From Botryosphaeria dothidea (Eukaryota > Ascomycota > Dothideomycetes > Botryosphaeriales > Botryosphaeriaceae): a stretch of DNA of 64,000 nt. The position numbers were made by a program, and so were the translations under genes. The stretch lies in the NCBI GenBank assembly GCA_011503125.2, contig WWBZ02000033.1, positions 3,596,001-3,660,000 on the forward strand. Reading direction: 5' to 3'. This document shows positions 33,701 to 51,900 of this stretch, piece by piece. Each line of letters opens with the position of its first letter. Positions within the stretch are counted from its first letter, which is position 1. The notes beneath the pieces are model-generated. The model was not told the origin of the DNA. It made no database searches and saw only the letters and a program-made list of their open reading frames with translations.

Positions 33701-34690
33701 CTAATGGCATGGAATCAGCTCTTCCAAATATTCTTTCAGCTTTGGCGGATCTGGCAGCTTCGAATTCTCCAACGACAAGCGACCGATGAGCTTTAGCTCC
33801 AAGCTTCGGCTCTCGTACATGTACTGTGAGATCTCGACAGTCTTCTTCGTCGGACGCTCGTAGGTCAAAGTCCACACACTCTCATCGTCCTGTTCCTCCC
33901 GCTTCCATTGCGACTTTTGCTTGCTGGAAGATGAGACACCATTCTCGCTGAAGAGGGTCCCCTTGGCTTTTGGGGCCCGCATAGCCCCAATGAGTTTACC
34001 AAAGTCAGATAGACTCCAGCAAATGACCTCTCTTGTGTCCTGTTATGCTTCTTGGCTTCGGAGAACATGTTGAACACCAGGCCTTTGAGTACCTCCTCGT
34101 TGAAGTGAACCAGCCTTGCGCTTTCAAGTTGCGAGACCATCCAGGCTAGAGCCATAACAGACATGACCCTGTCTCGGTAATCGGACGCTCCGCCACCAAC
34201 AACGGAATGGACGCCAATAAGCCAGCATTTTTTGAGCACTTGGTTTTGGTATGGCGAGCCTCTGAATAGCGAACCTAAACGAAATTCTTCGGGGCTTTCG
34301 TAGGATCGGCTCGGAGAGGAAGCACACCCATCGTGCCGACGGTATCCCATGCAGCAACGCACAAAATGCCAGGCTCGCCTTTGATAGCAGTGCCAGAGGA
34401 TGCTTACGTGTTGGTGCCTGTGGACGAAGCCCTTGCTGAAAGCCATTTCGTACAGAAATTCTCGACATGGGATTCAAGGGTCCTGGGTTTTGCCTGGAAG
34501 GATGCCAAAATCGCACACGAAGATTGCCAAAGCCCTGGCTAATGACAGCTCCTCGAGAGAACCCGACAAGGACTATCTGGTCGCTATCTTCGTATTCCTT
34601 GCATAGCCATTCGTAGCAGTGACAAATGTTCTCGTCGACGCCGAGCGCCCCAGCCTTGCTGAAAACTGTCTGCCCCACCCCGCGACGCGT
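33701..34690 (-). pseudogene. DUF2235 (Tle1-like alpha/beta hydrolase) pseudogene
   Basis: Family blocks appear in the right order but in changing frames. ICHCYEWLCKEYEDSDQIVLVG then GFSRGA carries the nucleophile Ser. SLARALAIFVCDFGIL follows in a shifted frame, and AAWDTVGTMGVLP lies in that frame after a TAA. LIGVHSVVGGG, with the His region, and MALAWMVSQLES lie in yet another frame. A C-terminal tail with KEYLEELIPCH ends at 33701. Short introns cannot repair these breaks; one candidate would be only about 29 bp. The gene start is also missing its usual RLIVxCDGT block. An intact paralogue lies at 48910-52025 on the same strand, but the two differ too much for a recent duplicate. Intact forms are predicted lipases. 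Confidence 0.8.
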
Positions 34691-35187
34691 AACAAGTAGC
34701 CATAAGCTTAAGATTATAGGGTATTGGGGTCTAGAAACTTAACCTTATTCAGTAATTTAGGGTGGAGAGGCTTTTGACTAACGTTTTATTGCTGCTTACT
34801 TATTGCGTCCAATTGCATGGAACAGATCGCATGGACACTGGCAGAATAACAAGTATCGGGACTTCAATATCGTCAAATCAGCTAACGAAATTATAAAACG
34901 GAAGTTGTACTAAGCTCTGTATGAGCTATCCAACAAATGGCGGTCTGCCAAACGTGGCTTGAATGGGCGTAGCACAAACACATTCGCTTGCAATTTTGAG
35001 CCAGTCAACCGGTCACGAATCTCAATTGATATACTCGTCTCTACAGCATGAAACAACTCTAAATGTATGATTTTCCGGCAGAGCTTATCTTGTTTGGCAT
35101 TGATGCATCAGAATTCATCGCTAATTGTGAAAACCAAAGGCATGAGCACTACTGAATAGCAAAGGAATTCAAGAAAGCATGTTCCGA
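34691..35187. other. AT-rich intergenic
   Basis: AT-rich sequence with frequent TAA/TTA and no coding frame. It could be decayed mobile or repeated DNA, but no terminal repeats are visible. Confidence 0.4.
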
Positions 35188-36411
35188 TTAGGGGGAGGAC
35201 AAGGTCAGGAGTGCTGGGTTGAAGGCAATGTAGGAGGCAGCCGCCGAGCCAATATTGTCCCATGTACTAATATGCCACCTCATCCTCTCCTTCATAATTT
35301 CAGGTGCCCCTGCACTGATCCTGAGTTTCTGTGCATGGTCGAAGTCCAATTTGTTGATTCCAATAAGAACGCGTGGAGGGACCTGAAACCCCATGGAATC
35401 AAAAGTGACGTAGCCGCTATTTTCGTGACTGCTGTGGCCCCGAGGTGGTAGCTCGCCACTGCTCACTTCCGGCATGTCTGCAGGATGAGCAATCCAAGTG
35501 GCACCGCAGGAAGAGATTTTCGAATCATCCCATGTATCGATGTTGATGGTGAATCCGGTCTCCGTGACTTCTGTTGCGTACGTATGAACGCGCCATCCTC
35601 CATCAGAACTGATGTCCATAGAGTTGAACCAGACCACCACTTTCGGTGGAGCCGCATACGCACGCTTGAAGGTGATGCGCCGAGATGTCTTCGGCTGCGG
35701 TTCCGTCCAAGGGTGATCGTCCATGGTGTTGAATGTGCCGTATTGGTAGTCTGGGCTGTTCGTCGCAATTTCCATGCAGCAGCAACCGGCCTCTTTCAGG
35801 TTCGTAGTAAACCAGGACTGAAGAGTGATAGAGAATATGCGCTGACCTTCGTCGACCTCAGCGCAGGCTCTTACCCGGAGATTGCTACCAGTGTCTACGT
35901 GTATAGAACTGATTCCCAAAGCCACGCAGTGCGCTCTCGTCGTGTCGTTGAAAGAGAAAACCTGCCATTTTGCGACCTCGGCTACCACTGTATGATGTTT
36001 CACTTGTCTCGCGTGGAAAGATCCGTTGTTTCTGGCTGGTTTCTGTGCCGATCGTGACAAGAGTAGTTCTGTTATATCGGAGTCGCCCTTCTCGATCGCA
36101 AGACCCAGAAGAGGTCCGCCCTTGATAGAGCAGTTGGCATCGGCTCCTTCTTGTAGCAAATATTCGACCACCTCAATATGCTGCTGTTCAACTGAAGCAA
36201 CCAAAGCATCGTCGGAAGAGACTTGAACAAGCTCCGGTGGCATGAATCTCCTGAGCACTTGGAGGAACGCTTTCACTTTTGACTGATTCCCGTCTCTTGC
36301 TGCCTCGATCAAGGAGCTTTCCACATCTGCGCCCAGATCTGTATTCGAGTTAAGACAACGTGAACCAAACACCTCAGAAGCGTGACCTACAGCATTGGCC
36401 GTTCCCTCCAT
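35188..36411 (-). CDS. ankyrin-repeat plus H-type lectin protein
   Basis: One exon, 407 aa, no signal peptide. Residues about 25-120 are ankyrin-like: SSLIEAARDGNQSKVKAFL, HIEVVEYLLQEGADANC and DITELLLSRSA. The rest is three tandem H-type lectin-like units, at about 135-215 (degenerate), 225-305 and 320-405. The second unit is canonical: ITFKRAYAAPPKVVVWF, D-GGWRVHTYATEVTETGF, TWDDS and ATWIAHP. The third has YVTFDSMGFQVPPRVLIG and ISTWDNIG. H-type lectins bind sugars, classically GalNAc. Ankyrin plus lectin in a cytosolic protein suggests recognition followed by protein interaction. It sits next to the HeLo gene, so a role in non-self or injury sensing is possible but is inference. Confidence 0.82.
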   Translation of the reverse strand: MEGTANAVGHASEVFGSRCLNSNTDLGADVESSLIEAARDGNQSKVKAFLQVLRRFMPPELVQVSSDDALVASVEQQHIEVVEYLLQEGADANCSIKGGPLLGLAIEKGDSDITELLLSRSAQKPARNNGSFHARQVKHHTVVAEVAKWQVFSFNDTTRAHCVALGISSIHVDTGSNLRVRACAEVDEGQRIFSITLQSWFTTNLKEAGCCCMEIATNSPDYQYGTFNTMDDHPWTEPQPKTSRRITFKRAYAAPPKVVVWFNSMDISSDGGWRVHTYATEVTETGFTINIDTWDDSKISSCGATWIAHPADMPEVSSGELPPRGHSSHENSGYVTFDSMGFQVPPRVLIGINKLDFDHAQKLRISAGAPEIMKERMRWHISTWDNIGSAAASYIAFNPALLTLSSP

Positions 36412-37393
36412 AGTGGTTCTCCTAATACATCACTCGTCATTTAATTGATTACTTTGATGAATTCGAGGAGATTATCATACCGTGAAGTTCTGATTCCCCG
36501 CGAAGGACTGTCGGCTTACTTGCAGATTGACCTTTGTTACTTCGTGGTTATTCCATTGGTTCGTATCGTCATCCTGGTTCATGATTAAGATTCAGAATCG
36601 AAATGAGGATCAGATAGAGCGCACATGAGATTCTTGTATCGCATCCTTTTGCGTCATAGCTTAAAGAGAAATAACCGACACCGGCAGAAGACCTTTGAAA
36701 CTCCGGATTCAGAATGCGGCAGTTAGGTGAGATGATAGCTGGAGGCAAGGTGTGTTGTTGGGCTGGTCGTTTGCGCGGTGAGGTAATTTGTCGCCTACTT
36801 TTGGCCAAAGCTGCATTTCATTTAGTAAGCAGCCACGTGGACGCTGTGGGCGACGCATGAAGCTACTTGATGTGAGTAAGCGGCGTGACGGTGCCGTGTT
36901 AACTGCTGCCTGCCGATCAACGTTACAGCAAATCAATGATTGGCAATGGCAAGGAAAATCTTTAGGGGCATCGTGACGTATATGCATGGATAATATGTAT
37001 CCCATGTGATTCTGGTAAGCGGAAGCAAGATTTCTACGGCACCAATTATAGTGTATCGTCCGCAAGTTCCGTTTATCCGTTCGTGTAAAGTGGAAACAGA
37101 GATAGATCTGCGGTCGCCAACAATTCGGCTTTAACTGCATGGGGTCACATAAAGCGAGAAAATTCATTGCTGAATTACAAAGCCGACGTTTCATGCCAAG
37201 TGAAACACCCCCACCAGAGTCATAAAGAAGCTTAATCAAGACTGAGACTTGAAGTCGAAGCATCCGTGTGGATGGATTTGTCGCTACCAGAGCAATACAG
37301 GTACGTCCAGATGAATGCTTCCACTGCCCACGGAATGTCCAAATGAGGGGATTACAAAGAGAAGGAAGAGTCTTCAGCCAAGGCGCAAGTAGA
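36412..37393. other. intergenic between the ankyrin-lectin and HeLo genes
   Basis: Promoter of the ankyrin-lectin gene and 3' flank of the HeLo gene. It contains one degenerate copy of the MITE-like repeat (37253-37333). A 184-codon minus-strand frame (36709-37263) has Cys/His/Arg-rich composition and no recognisable domain; not called. Confidence 0.5.
37253..37333. mobile_element. MITE-like palindromic repeat, copy near the HeLo gene
   Basis: The right arm TACGTCCAGATGAATGCTTC, then CACTGCCCACGG, matches the right arms of the copies at 59.2 and 62.4 kb. The left arm GTCGAAGCATCCGTGTGGAT is a degenerate match to the left arm. Length is about 81 bp. It is the most diverged of the five copies. 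Confidence 0.5.
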
Positions 37394-38242
37394 TTAGTAA
37401 AAGGTCAACCCCCCAGATATACTCTGTTGCGAAATCTGTTGCCCAATCGTAACACCAGGGGAATTGTTCCAAGTGTTCTTCATTCTGAATTCCGAAAGAC
37501 TCTGTACTTTTTTACTTGACCGCCCTTTGCATGGGTAGGGGAGTAGGTGACTTACGTGGAGTTTTGCGGTTACATCCGAGATTGCGGCTTCGAGCTCCAA
37601 GTCTTGATCAGCTGCCACGTTACTGAGCATCGCCAGGCTGTCGCTTGGAACAGTCTTCAGGATATTGCGTACGTCATCCTGGCATATCTGCTGTTGGGCA
37701 GCTTTTGAAGCTGGGAATAACTCGGTGAGATCCTTGACGAGGTCTGTGACCTCTGCAATAAGCTTCCTTACATGCTCCTCTTTGTACAACGCCCACTTCG
37801 TCTTCTCACGCAAGCTTGTCCGGTTCTGACGTCCATGACACAAGTGGCGCATCTTTTCATGTAAAGATTCAACGGCCGGATCCAAGTCAGTCGGTGAATC
37901 GTATGCGCGCGGGCCCCCGCTCTGGCCTTTCAGCTTGGCGGAAGCCTGTTCAGTCCTGGAAAAAAGCTCGACAATGTGACCCAACACTTCCCCGGCTTTC
38001 TTGGCGTCTTCGTCTGATCCCAAAACCCCGTGAAGTGAGTGTGCCTTCTGGACGTCATCAGCCAGTCCCACAGCTTTCCCCCATCTTGAGAGCCGTAGTT
38101 GGGCCATGTCCAGCTTGAGAAGGCTGGTCTGGAAATCTACTCCGAGATTCCGACCGATTTGAACATACTTGAAGCAGTCCACGGCGTTATTAAACAAGGC
38201 TGCAAGCCCAACAACGCCGACCGCGAGTCCAGCGGGATCCAT
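37394..38242 (-). CDS. HeLo-domain protein with C-terminal amyloid-like motif (HET-S type)
   Basis: HeLo domains are membrane-damaging cell-death effectors held inactive until a C-terminal prion-forming segment is templated. Two exons (38242-37556, 37501-37394) with a 54-bp intron give 264 aa. The N-terminal membrane-active helix is GLAVGVVGLAALFNNAVDCF, followed by KYVQIGRNLGVDF and LDMAQLRLSRWGKAVGL, the HET-S/LOP-B hallmark order. The rest up to about residue 225 is helical. Exon 2 encodes only 35 residues, ending K-N-T-W-N-N, then PGVTIGQQISQQSISGG and LTFY. This tail matches the tail of the divergent hydrolase at 38935. The intron length is a multiple of three, so retention would insert 18 residues without stopping. 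The domain call is firm; amyloid activity is inferred. Confidence 0.9.
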   Translation of the reverse strand: MDPAGLAVGVVGLAALFNNAVDCFKYVQIGRNLGVDFQTSLLKLDMAQLRLSRWGKAVGLADDVQKAHSLHGVLGSDEDAKKAGEVLGHIVELFSRTEQASAKLKGQSGGPRAYDSPTDLDPAVESLHEKMRHLCHGRQNRTSLREKTKWALYKEEHVRKLIAEVTDLVKDLTELFPASKAAQQQICQDDVRNILKTVPSDSLAMLSNVAADQDLELEAAISDVTAKLHVSHLLPYPCKGRSSKKVQSLSEFRMKNTWNNSPGVTIGQQISQQSISGGLTFY

Positions 38243-38934
38243 GCCTCGAGAGCACGGACAGACAGGGCAAAGATATCAGAGGCGAATGACGTGAAGTGAC
38301 GGATAATTGAGGTCGAAGATTCTCACGGCCGTATGGGTGAGTCACAAATGATAGCGTGTGTTGCTGGCAAGCAGCACGGTCTCCACAGACGTTTTCTCGA
38401 ACAATGCCCTGGCACAGAGGATCGACTGACCTTAATTAGACGTGCGTTGGGTAGCCAGGTGGAGACTTACCGGTGTCGCAGGGCTGCAATCACATAAGCG
38501 AGGAAGCTTTGTTGTTGAGATTGGGCCTCACCTACGAGCAATCAGGCTTTTATATTAACGGACACATCACCGTCTCTTGCGAGCTGTTACATGAAAGTGG
38601 AGAACGGATGCAATGCTACCTCACCCCTGTTGCGACAACACTGATGTTCTGCCCCACACTTTCACATCCGCCACAGGTGCCCCCAGCCAGAATGTAACCA
38701 CATGCAGGAATTCAGGCTGCGCCTCGCGGAGGGTTGCTGGCATCATGATCAACCGAGCCGGTCAGCTCAACAGCCAGTTTGTGGTTAACAGCCTGCCACG
38801 CTGCGTGAGCCATAACCAACCTGTGCAATTGGTGGAAGATAAGCCAGGAGTCGGGTCATAGATGAAGAAAAAATATTTAATGGAGAGGACGTTCGTGCAT
38901 TATGAGACACAAGTCCTCAACAAAAACATCAAAA
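38243..38934. promoter_or_regulatory. shared divergent upstream region of the HeLo and hydrolase genes
   Basis: 692 bp between the two start codons of the motif-sharing pair. AT-rich, without a supported frame. An AATATTTAA stretch at about 38873-38881 lies 54 nt before the hydrolase ATG. Head-to-head arrangement suggests joint expression. Confidence 0.5.
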
Positions 38935-40019
38935 ATGCCTGCGTACGTCTTGGAACGAATCAGTGCCCGCAAGGATGCTAAGGTCGAGTAAGTATAGAGG
39001 TTATCACCCACTCAGAGCGGTCTTTCACTAAAATCACAAAGTGTAGTTTTCGTGCAGGACTTCGTTGGAAATCGGAAGACTTCTTGGACCAAAGATTCTA
39101 TTCTGTGGCCGCAAGACCTTCTCCTGTCTGATATTCCGGATGCACAGATCTGGATGGCGGGATATGAAAGGGAGATCGAAGACATGGGCCTCGAGCTCCT
39201 CAGTTCCACGATCGAGGAGCATGCTGAGGATCTTTGTAAGCAGCTATCCTCTGAGAAAACACCGGAGAATCCCGTCGTATTCGTTGCTGCCGGTCTTGGA
39301 GGTCTTGTTTGTGCGCAGGTTGGTTTTATTTTACAAAAAAGATGTCCGTAGACTGACGTTGATAGATTATGTATGACGGGCTTATGAGCCAAGAGGCAGA
39401 TGCCCTGTCAAACGTAGTGAAGAGAGTCAAAGGGCTTGTCTTTCTGGGTACTCCATTTCAGACACGTCAACAGGCCAGATACACAGAGATCGTCAGAAAG
39501 ATTGCACAGACCGTTCACACGAGGGAGCCAGACAACTTTCAGCATCGAAGACTCAGCCACATCGCCGACTCGTTCATCGGAAAATTGAAAGAACAGTCCC
39601 ACGAGCGGAGACTGAACATCTCCTTGCTTTGTGAAAAGCAGGATACCGTTGAAACAGTATTATTCCATGCCACTCCAAAATAAGTCCTTGACTTACCCAG
39701 ACAGGTCATTTCCCAAAACGAAGTCAAGCTTGACGGCTACGGTGAGCCCATGCCGATTCCAGCAGGCTACACCAACTTGTCCAAGTTCACGGACAGGAGA
39801 GAGGAAGGATATCAGACGATATTATCTGTAATCAAGAAGATTGCTCGCTCGGAGAAGAAGACTGAGCCACAGGTAAGCTATCTCTCAGTCCAATTCGCTG
39901 GTATATACGCTGAAAAAGTATAGACCATGCCCGCCAACACTTGGAACAACTATAACAGTGTAAAAGTCGCTCAGCAAGTAGCACAGGCAATCATTCATGG
40001 GAATCAAATCTTTCATTAA
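38935..40019 (+). CDS. SesB-like alpha/beta hydrolase, catalytically degenerate, with shared amyloid-like tail
   Basis: Five exons (38935-38987, 39042-39318, 39366-39656, 39705-39872, 39924-40019), introns 47-54 bp, 294 aa. The fold landmarks of the SesB/PGAP1-like hydrolases found at N-termini of fungal NLRs are present: a VVFV strand, a WPQDLL segment, DAQIWMAGYE, GLGGLVCAQ, VKGLVFLGTPFQTRQ and a late KLDGYGEPMPIPAGYTN block. The catalytic positions have changed. The first strand ends in Q-D instead of H-G, the nucleophile elbow reads VAAGLGG with no Ser, and the expected late His is Tyr (AGYTNLSKF). The last exon encodes only 31 residues, P-A-N-T-W-N-N then VKVAQQVAQAIIHGNQIF, resembling the HeLo tail. 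It is probably a signalling pseudo-enzyme; that is inference. Confidence 0.85.
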
Positions 40020-40908: not shown

Positions 40909-43492
40909 TTATGATAGGTTGGAAACTTCACTAGACCCTCCCCCTTGACAGAGACTGCGTACCTCCTGGCCGTCCATACAACTGTGAAGGCAGCATTCTC
41001 CCACAAATTGGAACTGCGGTTGCGGCTCAGACTCACTGGGCGCGACCGCTCCATCTCGAGGACGCAAGACATAAAGGACTTTTCCACCAAACAACGCTAC
41101 AACCATATCACCAATCTTGGTGCCAGCCGGACATAGCCCAAGCCTATTCTTTCTCATGAAGAGGAAACACTTACCCTCAAAGTGCCTCCATTTCATTTGG
41201 AATGCGGCCGCATAAACTTCAAGATTGTCCTTCGGAATACGTGTTCGCAGGTACGCTTGAGCCTCAAGGGGAATCTTTGTCATTTCGGGGTCTTCTGGGG
41301 GATTTACCCAACATGCTGCCAGCTGCTCACCAACACCAGGCTGTTCCCACAATCCTTTTCAGCCGGGTTGAGAGGTCTGGTAAATGTTCTTCGTCTCCCC
41401 TGTAAGGGTCTCGATGTACATCTCGAAGAGGTCGTCCCTGGACTTCTTGTTGAACGGACAACTGGGGCCATGTTGCCGATGATATATTTCACATACATCG
41501 TATAGCTTCTGGATAGCCCACCAGAATTGTACAAGGCTATTTATCGGTGGTTCATCAGACAGGACCTGGCGCGGAAATGGCTCTGACGGAATAGAAAACT
41601 CATCCGATAGCTTTCCTTGTATAACGTCCAAGCGGACACCGCGTAAAGATAGGATACGGCTTTTGGCGTTTCCCTCTAACAGGCCTTTGTCTATCTCCAT
41701 GCCACCTGCAACGCTGGTCTGGACCGTCGAGTGCAGAGAAGCGGTTCCATTTCCGGATCTTGGAATGTGCCATGGTGCCCAAGAGGGGTGCCGCTCTGCC
41801 CCTTGGTCAGCATTTAACTGCTTGCAATTTTCGCAGGCAAGCTCTTCCGATGTTGTCATTCCACTAGTAAGACTGAGGACTTCAAGCGAGTTGTGGCGGC
41901 TAATACATGTGCGCGCGAGGTTGGCGTAAGCTTGGCTCGTAGATTCGTTGTAGTCCGGGGCGACAATGGGAAATCCTTGAATATCCTTACAGAGACCTAG
42001 AACTCCGAATAGCTTGTCCCGTGGATCGGTCGTGAAGAGTCGAGAAATTGTGGCTGAAAAGAGCTCCAAGACATCCATAAAGCCGCTCTGATTTTCTGAT
42101 TCTGGACCATGATGAATGGCCAAGTCTTGGCCAGAGTGGTGGTAGACCGTGATCTTCGAGGTCGTGATCAAGCACCCGGCAAGCTTGGTAGACTTGGTTC
42201 GCTAGGAAAATCGTTTCCATGGTATACCCGAGTTGTGCCCAGTCCGTATGAATACGGAGTCCCTTTTGGCACAATAAACCTCCTGGATCACTCAAACCCG
42301 CCGGAACCAAGGACTTGAGAGGAGCTCACGCATCCATCCACTCAATTTCTGTCTCGGTACAGCTTCTCCTTCTCGCTCCCAGCTATTAGTCATCAGATTT
42401 GCTATCGTACGAAATGACTCGGTTGATGGGTACGCAATATCGATGTTGTCCTCAAGCTCTAATTTCAGTGAGCGTGACATGCCTTCGAGGAACCCGCCCA
42501 ACTCGTCGTTCTTGTGTTTCCCAGTGAGGAATATCTGAACAGCGCCAGCTTGAGAGTAGATCTCCCTTATCATGGAAACCTGGTGGCTTCTTTCGTCAGC
42601 ATCGCCCTGGTTGATGGGCAACGCATCGATCCAAAAAAAAAGCTGGCTGGTGCTCTCCATCTCGTCGCCTGAGCATTTTTCTGGGTTGGGTCTGAGACAC
42701 TCCAGGGCTTCGTACAAGTTCCTGGTGACTAAGAAATAGACAATTTTTGAGTCGTGTCCAGCTTTGGTGCCGTTCGGAACAAAGACCAACTGAATCTGGC
42801 GAGGATTCCGGAAATCGCCCCATGCATACGTGTCAGACTATTTTGCCCTACTATATCAGGTATCACATTCTTTCGGGCATCAAGATCAGTAGCTACTCTT
42901 TGCCACCTCCTCACTACTCCTCATGTTCACAAGCTTCGGATATTAACATCGGCTTCTGTTCTCCTCGGTTATTTAAACACTCTTTTATGTATATAAGTAA
43001 GCCTAACGACCTCCCTCTCAGAAGACAGGCAGAATCTACTCTCTTTTCTGACCTCACAACTCTTCACTCTCAAATCCAACAATACGACAATTCAGTGTAG
43101 TGGTTTTTACATTCCGAGATTGGGTACTTCATGATCCAACACATCATGGCCTTATTCGGCGTGGCAGGCACGATTCGGATGAGTCGTATCTCCTTCTTCG
43201 CTTTGTCAACGCCCTCGTACGATCCATACTCGTTTCGTAGGCACCGGAGACTAGATATTTGTGCGTCATCGATTGCGGTCGCGTGTGTTGAATGACAGGG
43301 GCAGAAGTCGGCATCCGCGGGTAGAGCAGGGAAGGCATTGAGGGCGTGGTCTGCGAGATGTTTGCAGTCGTCGCACAAGTCTTCGTCGCAAGTCTCACAC
43401 TTCCAACGTGTTTCCCGGATCGGAGCAATACCACAACTGTCGCACATGTAAAGTGACTCCCGGGATACCGCTCTCTCTGCCATGGAGTCCAT
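40909..43492 (-). pseudogene. HET-domain (heterokaryon incompatibility) pseudogene with ZZ finger
   Basis: Intact HET proteins trigger incompatibility cell death. The 5' part (43492-43090) encodes a ZZ-type zinc finger (CDSCGIAPIRETRWKCETC, DLCDDCKHLADH) and the start of HET (IRLIRIVP, YTELSYCW). HET resumes near 42810 with WGDFRNPRQIQL, TRNLYEALECLRP, FFWIDALPINQGDADERSHQ and SSPWFRRV. The invariant WVIQE then reads TGA-VIQE (stop at 42292-42294). Next, LANQVYQACRVL and LPPLWPRLG lie in another frame, before return to the first frame at FMDVLELFSA and TTDPRDKLFGVLGLC. A second in-frame TGA lies at 41359-41361, before the C-terminal block GLCPAGTKIGDMVVALFGGK ending at 40909. No clean splice joins 43.09 to 42.83 kb. 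Two stops plus two compensating shifts make it non-functional unless the sequence is wrong. Confidence 0.82.
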
Positions 43493-43926: not shown

Positions 43927-45379
43927 CTAGAATGCCGTTTTCAAGCCTGCCTTGGCTCCACCAGCAGAGGGAGCCTCCTGAAGAAGGTCTTCCGACTTCG
44001 TGTAAACTTTCTCTCCACGCAACCATGTCTCAGTGACGACACCCTTAAGCGTCTTGGTCTCATACGGCGAAATCTTATGGCGGAACTGCATCGTGCTCGG
44101 TCCTACGACAAAAGTAGCCTCATCATCAAAAACGACGATATCCGAATCATACCCAACCGCGATATCCCCCTTCGAATCCAATCCAACCTGCTCAGCCGTA
44201 TTCTTCGAAGTCAACCTCACGACATCCTCAATCCCAAGGCCGCGCTTCTCACCCTCCGTCCACAAGATACTGAGCCCCAGCCCCAGCCCCAGCCCCAGCC
44301 CGCTAATCCCGCCCCAAGCGGAGAAAAAGTCACTCTCCTGCCCTTCGACGCTATGCGGCTCAACCGGGCGGCTCTGCGGCAAGAGCTTCGAGTCCAGCGT
44401 ACAGGGCGAGTGGTCCGACACGACCGAGCGGATCACGCTGCCCCGCCTCTGCAGCTCCACCCACAACCCTTCCTGGTTCGCCTGCTCGCGTGTCGGCGAC
44501 GAGCACTTGTACTGCGTATCGCCCTCCTCGACCCCTTCGGCCGCGAGGCTGAGGTAGTGGAAGCACGTCTCGGCGGTGATCCTGACGCCCCTGGCGCGCG
44601 CCTCCTGGAGGGTGGGGATGCCCTGCATCGCGGAGAGGTGCACGATGTGCAGGTCCAGCCGCGGCGCGACGTGGGCGAGTGAGAGGATCTCCTCGATGGC
44701 GTAGGTCTCGAGGGCGGCGGGCGCGTGTCGAGGTAGGTCTGGTAGTTGGTGCGCGGGCCCGGGATGGGGACGCCGTTCTCGCCTGCGAGGGTGACGTTGG
44801 GAGGGTCCATTTCGGCGTGGAACATGACGGTGGTGGGGCGAGTTGGCGAGCTCGAGCAGGGCCTTTTCGATGTCGGAGGGGCCGAGGGCGGGGAACTCGT
44901 CGATCTGTGGAGAGGTAATCGGTAGGCTGTTGAAGTCCTGAACAGGGCGTCTTGTTTACTCCACTGTCAATGAGGAAGCCCTTGGAGCCTCTCACACCAG
45001 CTTCTACCAGGGGCTTGAGCTCCTTCTCGTTGTCAAGAATGATTAGCATTGACCTTGAGCAGCCTTTACCTTCGTGTTTAGGTTTTCAACAGTAGTAGTA
45101 GGTGGAAGCGCATTTAGCGGCATGTCAATGAGCGTAGTCACGCCACCAGATGCCGCAGCCCTAGTACCGGACCAAAACCCTTCCCATTCAGTCCGCCCAG
45201 GTTCATTCAGAGGGTCCCATTGGGAAAGTCGGAAAGAGAAAGAACAGAGTCGAAAACAGAAATGATCTTGCCATTAGTGGTGTTGACCACCCATGTTGCC
45301 TCTTTCAGGCGCCCAGATACAACAGCGCGGGAAGAAGCAATAACTGCCAGGGAAGGTGCAGGGTATGAATTGTTGTATT
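43927..45379 (-). pseudogene. DAL1: allantoinase pseudogene
   Basis: Allantoinase opens allantoin to allantoate in purine degradation. The N-terminal part reads AVIASSRAVVSGRL and [16 protein letters not shown], then NGT-L and [19 protein letters not shown]. The LLPGLVDAHVH segment with the zinc ligands HxH, expected just before NEPG, is absent from the DNA. A second gap follows AAQGQC: a stop, then NEKELKPLVEAGVRG in another frame. A normal intron (GTAAAC to CACAG, ending at 44905) leads to DEFPALGPSDIEKALLEL. Single-base shifts then occur near 44835 and near 44715 before ETYAIEEILSLAHV, ITAETCFHYLSLAAEG, SDHSPCT, FSAWGGISG and ILWTEG. Two deletions, two frameshifts and lost metal ligands mean it cannot work. 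Confidence 0.88.
44274..44301. repeat. GGGGCT hexanucleotide repeat in the allantoinase pseudogene
   Basis: Four to five CCCCAG/GCCCCA units on the plus strand encode alternating Gly-Leu between GGISG and SILWTEG, where the family has no such expansion. The minus strand is G-rich and could form a quadruplex. Confidence 0.8.
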
Positions 45380-48909: not shown

Positions 48910-51900
48910 CTACCCAACCCTCTCGGGCATACTCCTCCTATACTCGCTCCCCGGTGGCCCACCCTTGATCCTCCTCCTCTCCACCACCTCCTCCCTGACC
49001 ACATCCCCCTCATCCGGCGGCGGCATGCTCATCCGCTCCCTCGGGCCCCTACTCTTACTCCGCGCACGGCTCTTCCTTGGCCGCGTTCGCGGCGGCCAAA
49101 GCAGATACTCAAACGTCTCGGGATCCCTCTCGGCGAGCTCCCTCTCCAGGCGGCTGAGCGGGGCCTCCGGCAAGACCTTTGTGCTGACGTCCCTCTCATC
49201 CACATTGCCACGCAGCTTCCAGTAGACGTCCGGCGGCGGCCCGGACGGCCTGTCGCGGGGGTCGACGACGGCGTCGTCCGGGTACTCGACCACCAGGCGC
49301 CAGTCGTCCAACGGCTCCGGGTCGTACTTGCCTTTGTCCTCGACGCCGGGCCCGCCAAGACGGAAGCGGGAGCGCACCGATGCGTGCATGTACTCGTGCG
49401 TGTCGCGCAGCGGGCGCCCTGTTGAGCGGCCCGTGTGCGGGTCGACGGCCGTGTACTGGCCAGGCGTGCGGGTGGCGCTGCCGCCGAGGCTGTAGATGCC
49501 GGCGGACGAGTTTGGTATTTCGCCGAAGGACCAGGGCCGGAGGGGTTGGTGGTGGCGCTCATAGTACCGGTCGTTCTCTTCTTCCTGGTCGAAGATATAC
49601 TTGATCTTGAAGTCAAGGAAGGGTTGGAGCTGGGAGACCATCCAGGCTAGTGAGATGTTAGCGAGCTGCTGGTCGTCGTAGCCACCGCCGACGTTGCTGT
49701 GGACACCCGGGAACCAGACTTGACGGAGGATCGTCCGATTGTCTCGAGGCTTCTCCCAGACCGCTGGAGAAAAGGATGCTCGACGTTCGTCCAGCGCTAA
49801 TGCTTGGAAGGCGTACTCGATGCAATTGGAAAGTTTGGTGTCATAGAAGGTCATCTCTCTTGACTGCATCGGTTGAAGGCCAACCCGCGTAAGCCACCCG
49901 ATTCTCGGAGCTCCAAGAGCGCCAACGGTATCCCACACTCCAATGGCCTTCACCCTCACGCCAAGGTAAGTCAACCCTCTTGCTTCAAGCTCATGTCTGT
50001 ACGCTGGATCACCCGCGTTAGGCTTGTTTGGGAATGGAATGTCCGGATTCCTGTCCCTGTGGTTCCGATCTCGCCGATGCTGCACATCCTCGAAGATTGC
50101 CACGAAAGCCCCGAGGCCTCTTTTCGTCAAGATTCCTATAGAGTCTATCAAGCCCGCAATGCTACGTGCGGTGAAAGCACCTCTAGAGAAGCCGATCAGG
50201 TAGATTTCGTCGCCAGGCGTGTAATTATTGCTCAAGAAGGAATAAGCTTCGCGTACGTTCTCCTCAAGCCCACCACCTGTTGAGCCGTTGATTACTTTGT
50301 TGATGACGTTTCCTCGAGAACCGACACCAAAATGGTAGTAGACAATCTGTGGTATGCCATCCTTGGACATGGGCTTGATGGCGCGGGACATGCGTGTTAC
50401 ATTACTGGGGACGGCAAGCTCACCGCTGGCCATGCCATTATCCGAGTTTAGCCATGTGCCTATATTCGTTAGCAAATAATGTAATCAAAGGAAAAAAAAA
50501 GAATTGGCAATAAGAGAACAGAGCGAACAAATTAAAAAAGAATTCCAGGAAGGGACGAGTCAGCTTTCTATCAAGTATCATGAACCAGCAATTCCAATCC
50601 AAAAAAGACGAGCAAGAATCAAGTTGAACTTTCAAAGATGTGACGGGTGATCAGCTTCTCCTCGGAAGTGTCTTTAACCGAGCATAATAACACAAGGATG
50701 GAAAATCCAAAGTTTTGGGTGTACTAGAAAGAAGAGCCGGAAATAGATGAGCCGGTCATGTCATGGAAGGCCAGAGAGATCATGAGCCGCATCTGAATGC
50801 ATATTTTTTTTTTTTTCGGGTGGTCTTTCTTCCGCAAAGACGAGGCCACTCGAGTTTCACAGATCAGACATCAGCAGCACTTACCGTCCGAAGAAGGCAG
50901 TCCAGGAAAGCTGAAAAGGCCGGACAAACCTCAAAGTCCAAGACGAGAACACAAAATCAATGTCAAAGGCCACCGCCACCATTCACAAACAGAACGCAGC
51001 AAGAAGAAAAAGAAGAAGAACTCACCATCACAAGCCACGATCAACCTCTTGAATGGCGGCGGACTGTCCGCTCCCCTCATATCCAGGCTGGCCTTCCTCC
51101 TGACCCGACTCTTACTCCTGGCCCTACTCTTACTCCTGCTCGGCACGATCTGCTCCACGATCTCAATCTCCTGCGGCTGGCTCCTGACCACCAATACTCC
51201 ATCATCACGCGTGTACACGCCTTCCTCTCTCCCGGATCCGTTCCCCCTCGAACCGGCATGGACGATGTCATACTCTGACCGTCTGCTATGATTCGACGGC
51301 ACCGGCCCACCGCCATACTCGTATATGGTGACACTCTCCTCCCTCGCAGGCGACGGGGCCTTCGTGAGCGCCATCTGGCTCGGATGCACGCTGTTGGGCG
51401 GGTTGGTCATGGTGGACACACTCTTCGCGCGGCCGCCGCCTCTCCGCTCATCCACATCAATCACAACGTCCCTCTCCCTCTCCCTCTCCCTACCGCCACC
51501 GCCTCTCCTCTCGTCAATATCAATCATGACCTCTCTTTCTCGCCCATCCCGGCTCCGTTCATCGATGTCGACCACGATTTCCCTGTCCCTCGGCTCCCTC
51601 TCCCTCTCCCTCTCCCTCTCCCTCTCCCTCACAATTCTCTCCTCCCTCACCGACATCGGCGGTGCCGGCGCAGGCGGGGGAGGCGGCGGTGGCACGACAA
51701 TCTCCTCCCTCACGCTTCTCCTCCCACTGGGCGGCGGCGGCGGTGGCACGACGATCTCTTCCCTCACGCTCCTCCTCGAACTTGGTGGCGGCACATCCCT
51801 CACCGTTTCGCGGACCTCCTGCACCTCGATCAGGTCATGATGCGACGGCGGCGGCGGCGGCGGTGGCGGCGGCCCTCCGTACATCGACGTGGCGCGTGGG

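What the first reader, a model, noticed from the sequence alone, without database searches (positions are those of the whole stretch)
37394..40019. Divergent HeLo effector and SesB-like hydrolase share a C-terminal amyloid-like motif
Read directly: the HeLo protein and the head-to-head hydrolase both end in N-T-W-N-N, three residues, V-x-[IV]-x-Q-Q-[IV]-x-Q, then I, G and F at matching positions (12 identities in about 27 with no gap, many others conservative). The rest of the proteins are unrelated. Known: in het-S/nwd2 and HELLP/SBP/PNT1 clusters, a membrane-killing effector and its regulators carry the same prion-forming motif, and the regulator's motif templates the effector's. Inference: this pair is such a system. 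The motif has the V-x-[IV]-G-like core of HRAM/PP/RHIM motifs but differs from the forms I know, so it may be a divergent or new class. No NLR partner is visible in the window.
Basis: partly seen in the sequence, partly recalled or inferred. Interest (0 to 1): 0.88.

Follow-up and report, generated by a model that had tools for sequence, protein, structure and literature searches.

The report
Fungal death-motif trio with lectin sensor
In a plant-associated fungus, three neighbouring genes (a likely cell-killing protein, a dead enzyme and a sugar-binding protein) carry the same short amyloid-like tag, which suggests that a lectin, not the usual NOD-type receptor, may trigger prion-like cell suicide.

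Summary
The HeLo protein and the divergent SesB-like protein end in the same 28-residue motif (12 of 28 identical; 0 of 200,000 shuffles as good). The third is a short exon with its own ATG just upstream of a frame with ankyrin repeats and three H-type lectin domains. In the gene models each motif sits on a short exon with a phase-0 border. The SesB-like protein keeps an alpha/beta-hydrolase fold but lacks the catalytic serine and histidine; a foreign homologue with the same tail keeps both. The motif occurs on HeLo tails of several Dothideomycetes. It matches no Pfam model and fits the printed PP, PUASM and GDQN patterns poorly; a tie to sigma is open, HRAM was tested only through Pfam. Best reading: an amyloid-signalling cluster with HeLo as killer, a lectin-ankyrin protein in the place normally held by an NLR, and a pseudo-hydrolase as third partner. 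Amyloid formation, templating, cell death and splicing of gene 3 are inferred. Source: Botryosphaeria dothidea.

The parts
37394..38242 (-). HeLo effector gene: exon 1 38242-37556, intron 37555-37502 (54 nt, GTAAGT..TACAG, phase 0), last exon 37501-37394; 264 aa
   Evidence: PF14479 E 4e-49; PDB 2wvo E 5e-32; the intron length is a multiple of 3 without stop, so the tail is in frame whether or not it is spliced
37397..37480 (-). C-terminal motif of HeLo protein KNTWNNSPGVTIGQQISQQSISGGLTFY
   Evidence: profile from 16 foreign tails E 3.7e-6 in the window
38935..40019 (+). SesB-like pseudo-hydrolase gene, 5 exons: 38935-38987, 39042-39318, 39366-39656, 39705-39872, 39924-40019; 294 aa = NCBI GTA08_BOTSDO05913 (P0121)
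   Evidence: exon model equals P0121; alpha/beta-hydrolase fold in AlphaFold2 model (pLDDT 60.6) and Foldseek; catalytic Ser and His absent
39933..40016 (+). C-terminal motif of pseudo-hydrolase ANTWNNYNSVKVAQQVAQAIIHGNQIFH, on the last exon (39924-40019)
   Evidence: E 9e-12
35188..36582 (-). Receptor-like gene: N-terminal motif, ankyrin repeats, three H-type lectin domains; proposed exons 36582-36481, 36421-36391, 36338-35188; 427 aa
   Evidence: H_lectin E 1.9e-39, 3 stretches; Ank_2 E 1.9e-7; gene model from a search of canonical splice sites; splicing inferred, no RNA
36481..36564 (-). N-terminal motif TNQWNNHEVTKVNLQVSRQSFAGNQNFT (residues 7-34 after the ATG at 36582; ends exactly at the exon-1 donor)
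   Evidence: E 2.6e-5 with a profile holding no window sequence; 12 of 28 identical to the pseudo-hydrolase motif, 10 of 28 to the HeLo motif

Best explanation
Three adjacent genes form one amyloid-signalling cell-death cluster. Shown by sequence: the HeLo protein and a SesB-like pseudo-hydrolase end in the same 28-residue motif, and a short exon with its own ATG, just upstream of an ankyrin/H-type-lectin reading frame, encodes a third copy. Inferred: that exon is the N-terminus of the ankyrin-lectin protein, and this protein is the sensor. When its three lectin modules are clustered by a multivalent glycan ligand (for example on an invader, or from damage or cell fusion), its N-terminal motifs are brought together and fold into an amyloid seed. 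The seed templates the HeLo tail, which releases the HeLo N-terminal helix to permeabilise the fungal plasma membrane and kill the cell. Ligand clustering would thus do the job that NOD-driven oligomerisation does in NWD2/HET-S. The pseudo-hydrolase descends from an active second effector (a foreign homologue keeps Ser and His and the same tail) and now most likely acts as a non-catalytic partner: a decoy, buffer or scaffold for the motif, or a bait. My own odds for the steps: shared functional motif in one system 0.95; amyloid-type templating 0.8; motif exon spliced to the ankyrin-lectin frame 0.75; pseudo-hydrolase with a present role rather than a relic 0.55.
For: A profile made from 16 foreign tails ranks these three sites first among all stop-to-stop pieces of 15 or more residues in the six frames of the window: E 9e-12, 3.7e-6, 2.6e-5; the next is 0.2. 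All three pairs beat 200,000 shuffles. The motif lies at the C-terminus of the two effector-type proteins and from residue 7 of the proposed receptor; most PP and HRAM motifs sit at positions 5-9 of NLRs (PMC9815663, section). In each gene model the motif is on a short exon with a phase-0 border and little else (7, 3 and 6 further residues). All three window motifs share a one-residue longer spacing between W and I/V with a foreign SesB homologue (P0122) and a Coniosporium HeLo (P0003); of the other 15 foreign tails in that alignment 14 have the short form and P0027 also has an extra residue. 17 of 120 listed HeLo homologues carry this motif, 52 a PP-type tail, none both, 51 neither (15 of the 17 were also rows of the profile). 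A SesB-like homologue with intact Ser and His and the same tail exists elsewhere (P0122). A profile scan of 49 distinct NLR-type places found no copy. A HET domain lies 2.3 kb from the cluster. A predicted lectin-fold domain determines recognition in a fungal allorecognition system (het-B, PMC10890737, abstract).
Against: No RNA, no fibril or death assay. Joining the motif exon to the ankyrin-lectin frame needs either two introns and a 31-nt exon, or one intron with an unusual GAG acceptor; no one-intron model with a [CT]AG acceptor works. The only near-identical database protein (P0128, 407 aa, one residue different) starts at the downstream ATG, although it may be an unspliced gene call. No relative of the ankyrin-lectin gene with a motif was found (6 hits in all). 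With HeLo tails alone as profile (15 rows) the values fall to 0.003 for the lectin gene and 0.0079 for HeLo, next hit 0.083. The absence of an NLR with the motif is weakly tested: own-genome protein searches found nothing outside the cluster, but they also missed known copies inside it (one search missed the lectin gene's, saw only the SesB-like tail, saw only itself); the profile scan read 49 places with about 1.5 kb upstream, while NPHP3_N alone gives 142 stretches. The lectin gene's motif carries 3 charged residues (1 each in the others).
Confidence: 0.6

Rival explanations
1. The motif exon is not part of the ankyrin-lectin protein (it is an upstream reading frame or a motif-only peptide); the true receptor is an NLR elsewhere in the genome with a diverged motif, as suspected for non-adjacent pairs.
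For: No one-intron model with a [CT]AG acceptor exists; P0128 starts at the inner ATG; non-adjacent NLR/effector pairing is discussed in PMC9815663 (section read); most NLR-type places of the genome were not read and the protein searches were insensitive.
Against: A fully canonical two-intron model, and a one-intron model with a GAG acceptor, both restore the frame; the motif ends exactly at a donor site; none of the 49 NLR-type places scanned holds the motif.
Confidence: 0.2
2. The motif is a divergent member of a known amyloid class (sigma, or one of the unnamed motifs such as NLR34 of Wojciechowski et al. 2022) rather than a separate class.
For: Some foreign members fit sigma submotif B better than PP-type controls do (4-5 of 8 positions in P0007, P0022, P0025, P0037, P0067, P0076 against 2-3 of 8 in 12 controls), though the window motifs reach only 2-3 of 8. 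NLR34 is a 28-residue ascomycete motif without assigned effectors; its logo is not in text, so it could not be compared. HRAM was tested only through Pfam.
Against: 0 of 18 tails match any Pfam model at E up to 10 (HMMER's filters drop most matches above 0.1), and the lectin gene's motif exon none at E up to 1; profile-profile probability with PP-type tails 3%; no class-A or window sequence fits more than 4 of 11 PP positions (12 PP-type controls 5-7), 3 of 7 PUASM or 4 of 13 GDQN.
Confidence: 0.3
3. The shared motif is a homotypic interaction tag that assembles the three proteins without amyloid folding.
For: No fibril data; the motif is short and the lectin gene's copy holds three charged residues.
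Against: N/Q- and aromatic-containing composition with few charges, position at effector C-termini and a proposed receptor N-terminus, and a HeLo effector whose close relatives carry PP-type tails all follow the amyloid-signalling pattern.
Confidence: 0.1
4. Chance or low-complexity convergence of N/Q-rich ends.
For: All three motifs are N/Q-rich (7, 9 and 10 of 28).
Against: 0 of 200,000 composition-keeping shuffles for each pair; profile without window sequences; tails of the same kind on HeLo homologues of other fungi and on P0122.
Confidence: 0.01

Closest known systems
HET-S / NWD2 (HRAM) amyloid signalling
   Same: HeLo protein (E 5e-32 to the HET-s HeLo structure 2wvo) with a C-terminal motif, and a motif at the proposed N-terminus of the gene next door
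   Different: Single 28-residue motif not matched by any Pfam model; receptor-place protein has ankyrin and H-type lectin domains and no NACHT or NB-ARC match in Pfam
HELLP / SBP / PNT1 (PP motif) and sesA / sesB / het-eN (sigma motif) triads
   Same: Three-gene logic: pore-former or SesA, SesB-type protein and a receptor sharing one motif (PMC3321046 passages; PMC5485727 section)
   Different: Motif is not PP and not plainly sigma; SesB-type protein has lost its catalytic Ser and His; no NLR
GDQN motif pair of Fusarium oxysporum
   Same: A recently reported extra fungal amyloid-motif family, found as receptor N-terminus plus effector C-terminus (PMC12261475 section)
   Different: Pattern does not fit (2-3 of 13 positions in the window motifs); its receptor is a probable NLR and its effector a SesA-type protein
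het-B of Podospora anserina
   Same: Predicted lectin-fold domain as recognition module in fungal regulated cell death (PMC10890737, abstract)
   Different: The lectin fold is fused to a HET domain, not to an amyloid motif
H-type lectins (Helix pomatia agglutinin, discoidin II)
   Same: Same domain family by sequence and fold
   Different: Those are stand-alone agglutinins (recalled); here three copies follow ankyrin repeats

Membership tests
NLR-based amyloid signalling (HET-S/NWD2 type) | HeLo or HeLo-like effector with a C-terminal motif | tested here: met
NLR-based amyloid signalling (HET-S/NWD2 type) | Neighbouring gene with the same motif at its N-terminus | tested here: inconclusive
   Motif exon with ATG at 36582-36481 is there; its splicing to the ankyrin-lectin frame is inferred
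NLR-based amyloid signalling (HET-S/NWD2 type) | That neighbour is an NLR (NACHT or NB-ARC plus repeats) | tested here: not met
   Only ankyrin and H_lectin families in Pfam
NLR-based amyloid signalling (HET-S/NWD2 type) | Motif forms transmissible amyloid and templates the effector | not testable with these tools
   needs wet-lab work
PP-motif systems (HELLP/SBP/PNT1) | Tail fits FxGx(x)NxGLQLxGxNxGxL / PF17046 | tested here: not met
   12 PP-type control tails reach 5-7 of 11, window motifs 2-3 of 11, other class-A tails at most 4
sigma-motif systems (sesA/sesB/het-eN) | Three-fold repeat of GxGxQFN / GGTQNINT submotifs | tested here: inconclusive
   submotif B at 2-3 of 8 positions in the window, up to 5 of 8 in relatives; no Pfam hit; published sigma sequences not at hand
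SesB-like lipase/esterase | alpha/beta-hydrolase fold | tested here: met
   AlphaFold2 model pLDDT 60.6, pTM 0.66; Foldseek best hit a serine hydrolase, E 2.4e-5, TM 0.41; homology to P0122. No Pfam hydrolase hit for the window protein itself
SesB-like lipase/esterase | Catalytic Ser (HSLGG) and His (H-x-D/E-M/I-C-K) | tested here: not met
   AAGLGG and YTNLSK in the window protein (P0121); AHSLGG and HSDMCK in P0122
H-type lectin | PF09458 domain | tested here: met
   3 stretches, E 1.9e-39; PDB H-type lectins E 6e-7
H-type lectin | Sugar binding | not testable with these tools
   binding-site residues were not assessed against a ligand complex

The most novel reading that the evidence does not exclude
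A new class of amyloid signalling motif wired to a receptor without a NOD: an ankyrin/H-type-lectin pattern-recognition protein that senses glycans and, by ligand-driven clustering alone, seeds prion-like activation of a HeLo death effector, with a catalytically dead SesB as third motif partner.
Probability: 0.45. Interest if true: 0.88.

Novelty: new variant of a known kind. Interest (0 to 1): 0.72.

Why it matters
Fungal amyloid signalling has been described, in the papers I read parts of, with NLRs as the switch, and what fungal immune receptors recognise is largely unknown (recalled). A cluster in which the receptor-place protein is a lectin would make the ligand question directly testable (glycan arrays), would suggest that amyloid death signalling does not need a nucleotide switch, and would add a motif class. 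The packaging of the motif on short phase-0 exons in three unrelated genes suggests how such tags move between proteins. I found no paper reporting this in an open-access PMC library: 20 of 43 listed; 15 of 2,917 listed, none of the 15 holds 'H-type lectin'; 2 of 2, off topic by title; 10 of 10; 3 listed of 4, on molluscs; 10 of 55 listed. Subscription papers and supplements were not searched.

Tried and rejected
Rejected: (1) chance similarity. (2) A PP-type tail: Pfam PF17046 is named Ses_B but is the PP motif according to PMC12261475 (section read); it is annotated on many relatives of the HeLo protein but does not match these motifs. (3) An active SesB hydrolase. (4) My first hydrolase model (start MPAGLSLKSQ), used: replaced by the NCBI model P0121, which my exon coordinates reproduce. 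(5) My first junction for the ankyrin-lectin gene (one intron, GAG acceptor), used as the query: it also keeps the frame, but the two-intron model uses the commoner acceptor form. (6) The third NTWNN site in the genome: reads as an STT3-type oligosaccharyltransferase. (7) A SesB-like gene with intact motifs at locus L008 near a NACHT match: no motif of this class found by the profile. Led nowhere: HeLo paralogues L045 and L046 run into other sequence by eye, not into the motif. The AlphaFold2 model of the ankyrin part is poor (pLDDT under 50 for residues 1-160), so only the lectin fold is used.
Full report
Origin. My first hydrolase model is covered to 96% at 100% identity by P0121, Botryosphaeria dothidea GTA08_BOTSDO05913, on a contig of 4,557,172 bases. 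The window lies on a contig of the same length in the held genome. The species is thus B. dothidea (Dothideomycetes, Botryosphaeriales).

The two tails. The HeLo gene (38242-37394, minus) has one 54-nt intron whose removal keeps the frame, so the tail is coded with or without splicing. Pfam HeLo E is 4e-49; the HET-s HeLo structure 2wvo matches at 5e-32. The SesB-like gene (38935-40019, plus) has five exons that reproduce P0121 exactly, tail included. The two tails share 12 of 28 residues without a gap; 0 of 200,000 shuffles score as high. NTWNN codons occur 3 times in 51.7 Mb: two here, one in an STT3-like gene (by eye).

The third copy. A profile of 18 tails (two of them from the window) scanned over the loci then held and the window found one more place in the window. 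I rebuilt the profile from the 16 foreign rows only: its best three hits in the window are the SesB-like tail (9e-12), the HeLo tail (3.7e-6) and the new place (2.6e-5); the fourth is 0.2. The rows were chosen by me from the tails. With HeLo tails alone (15 rows) the same three lead but the values weaken: 1e-10, 0.003 for the new place, 0.0079 for HeLo, then 0.083. The new copy reads TNQWNNHEVTKVNLQVSRQSFAGNQNFT, residues 7-34 after an ATG at 36582, and ends at a GTATGA donor. Downstream on the same strand lies a frame with ankyrin repeats (Ank_2 1.9e-7) and three H-type lectin stretches (1.9e-39).

Gene model of the third gene. Keeping this donor, with [CT]AG acceptors, introns of 40-160 nt and the search limited to about 430 nt from the ATG, no one-intron model restores the frame; twelve two-intron models do. 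The one I prefer uses introns of 59 nt (ending TATTAG) and 52 nt (GTAGGT...TACAG) with a 31-nt exon, giving 427 residues. A one-intron model with a GAG acceptor also keeps the frame (439 residues). Both are inference. The single near-identical database entry P0128 (407 aa, one residue different) begins at an inner ATG, as an unspliced gene call would.

Modular exons. The last exon of the HeLo gene codes for 7 residues plus the motif, that of the SesB-like gene for 3 plus the motif, and the proposed first exon of the lectin gene for 6 plus the motif; each bordering intron is in phase 0. By codon position the HeLo and SesB-like motif DNAs agree at 17, 17 and 9 of 28 sites, as expected from conservation of protein rather than a fresh duplication; the other two pairs (14, 12, 10 and 15, 16, 13) show this less clearly.

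Dead enzyme. Against P0122, P0123 and others the nucleophile motif HSLGG reads AGLGG, the histidine motif HSDMCK reads YTNLSK, and the HG near the N-terminus reads QD. The window protein has no Pfam hydrolase hit, but its model has an alpha/beta-hydrolase fold (pLDDT 60.6; Foldseek best E 2.4e-5 at TM 0.41). P0122 has intact Ser and His motifs and the same tail, so the ancestor was probably an active motif-bearing effector. The same genome holds another SesB-like gene with intact motifs.

Family of the motif. Of 120 listed HeLo homologues (180 found in all), 17 carry this motif, 52 a PP-type tail, none both, and 51 neither. Fifteen of the 17 were rows of the profile that counted them; P0001 and P0095 were not. 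Many of the 51 end near the intron position and look like unspliced calls (by eye). Named carriers include Coniosporium, Paraphaeosphaeria, Corynespora, Byssothecium, Exserohilum, Polyplosphaeria and Alternaria. Two of these were looked up and are Dothideomycetes. All three window motifs, P0122 and P0003 have one residue more between W and the I/V position; of the other 15 foreign tails aligned, 14 have the short form and P0027 has an extra residue. A length variant shared by three unrelated proteins of one cluster fits the within-cluster co-evolution of motifs reported for sigma (PMC3321046, passages).

Known classes. None of the 18 tails matches a Pfam model at E up to 10, with the filters HMMER applies, nor does the lectin gene's motif exon at E up to 1. 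Profile comparison with PP-type tails gives 3% probability, E 0.014. The printed PP pattern fits at most 4 of 11 positions in the 20 motifs and 5-7 of 11 in 12 PP-type control tails, a modest gap; PUASM (at most 3 of 7) and GDQN (at most 4 of 13) do no better than in the controls. Against separateness: sigma submotif B fits 4-5 of 8 positions in six relatives and 2-3 of 8 in the controls and in the window motifs, so a distant tie to sigma stays open. HRAM was tested only through Pfam. The unnamed motif NLR34 of PMC9815663 could not be compared, because logos and supplements are not readable here.

Is there an NLR instead? Own-genome searches with the HeLo tail, a class consensus and the lectin gene's motif found nothing outside the cluster, but none of the three found every known copy inside it, so they say little.

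Mechanism. From papers read in part: NLR N-terminal motifs are proposed or shown to template the motif of HeLo or SesB-type effectors (PMC5485727 section 5; PMC3321046 passages). Here the protein in the receptor place has no nucleotide switch in Pfam. I infer that glycan-driven clustering of its lectin domains brings the motifs together, that the seed converts the HeLo tail, and that the HeLo N-terminal helix then attacks the fungal membrane. The pseudo-hydrolase may buffer or scaffold the motif or serve as bait. Each of these steps is untested.

Verdict. I rate it a new variant of a known kind, with a real chance of a new motif class and a receptor without a NOD.

Noticed in passing
window 42295-42837 (-), probably continuing to 40912: HET-domain match (PF06985 E 4.9e-14) close to the cluster, another candidate cell-death or allorecognition gene.
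   Followed up: partly
window 33868-34738 (-): Two frames directly beyond the lectin gene each match a part of the Tle1-like phospholipase domain (PF09994, profile positions 66-108 and 245-287); multi-exon or decayed gene. No motif found there by the profile.
   Followed up: partly
window 48913-50484 (-): Full Tle1-like phospholipase domain (PF09994 E 1.7e-83), a second match to this family within 15 kb.
   Followed up: no
window 43930-44955 (-): Amidohydrolase match (PF01979 E 9.2e-9).
   Followed up: no
HeLo homologues P0001-P0120: Close HeLo relatives carry either a PP-type tail (52 of 120) or the motif described here (17 of 120), none both: tail swapping on one HeLo lineage.
   Followed up: partly
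L045, L046 (HeLo paralogues in the same genome): HeLo-matching frames continue into sequence that looks kinase-like by eye, an arrangement reminiscent of MLKL (recalled); not tested with a profile.
   Followed up: no
   Followed up: no
L008 (SesB-like gene) and nearby NACHT match at C58:847787: A SesB-like gene with intact AHSLGG and DHCAMC lies close to a NACHT match on the other strand, possibly a second effector/NLR pair.
   Followed up: no
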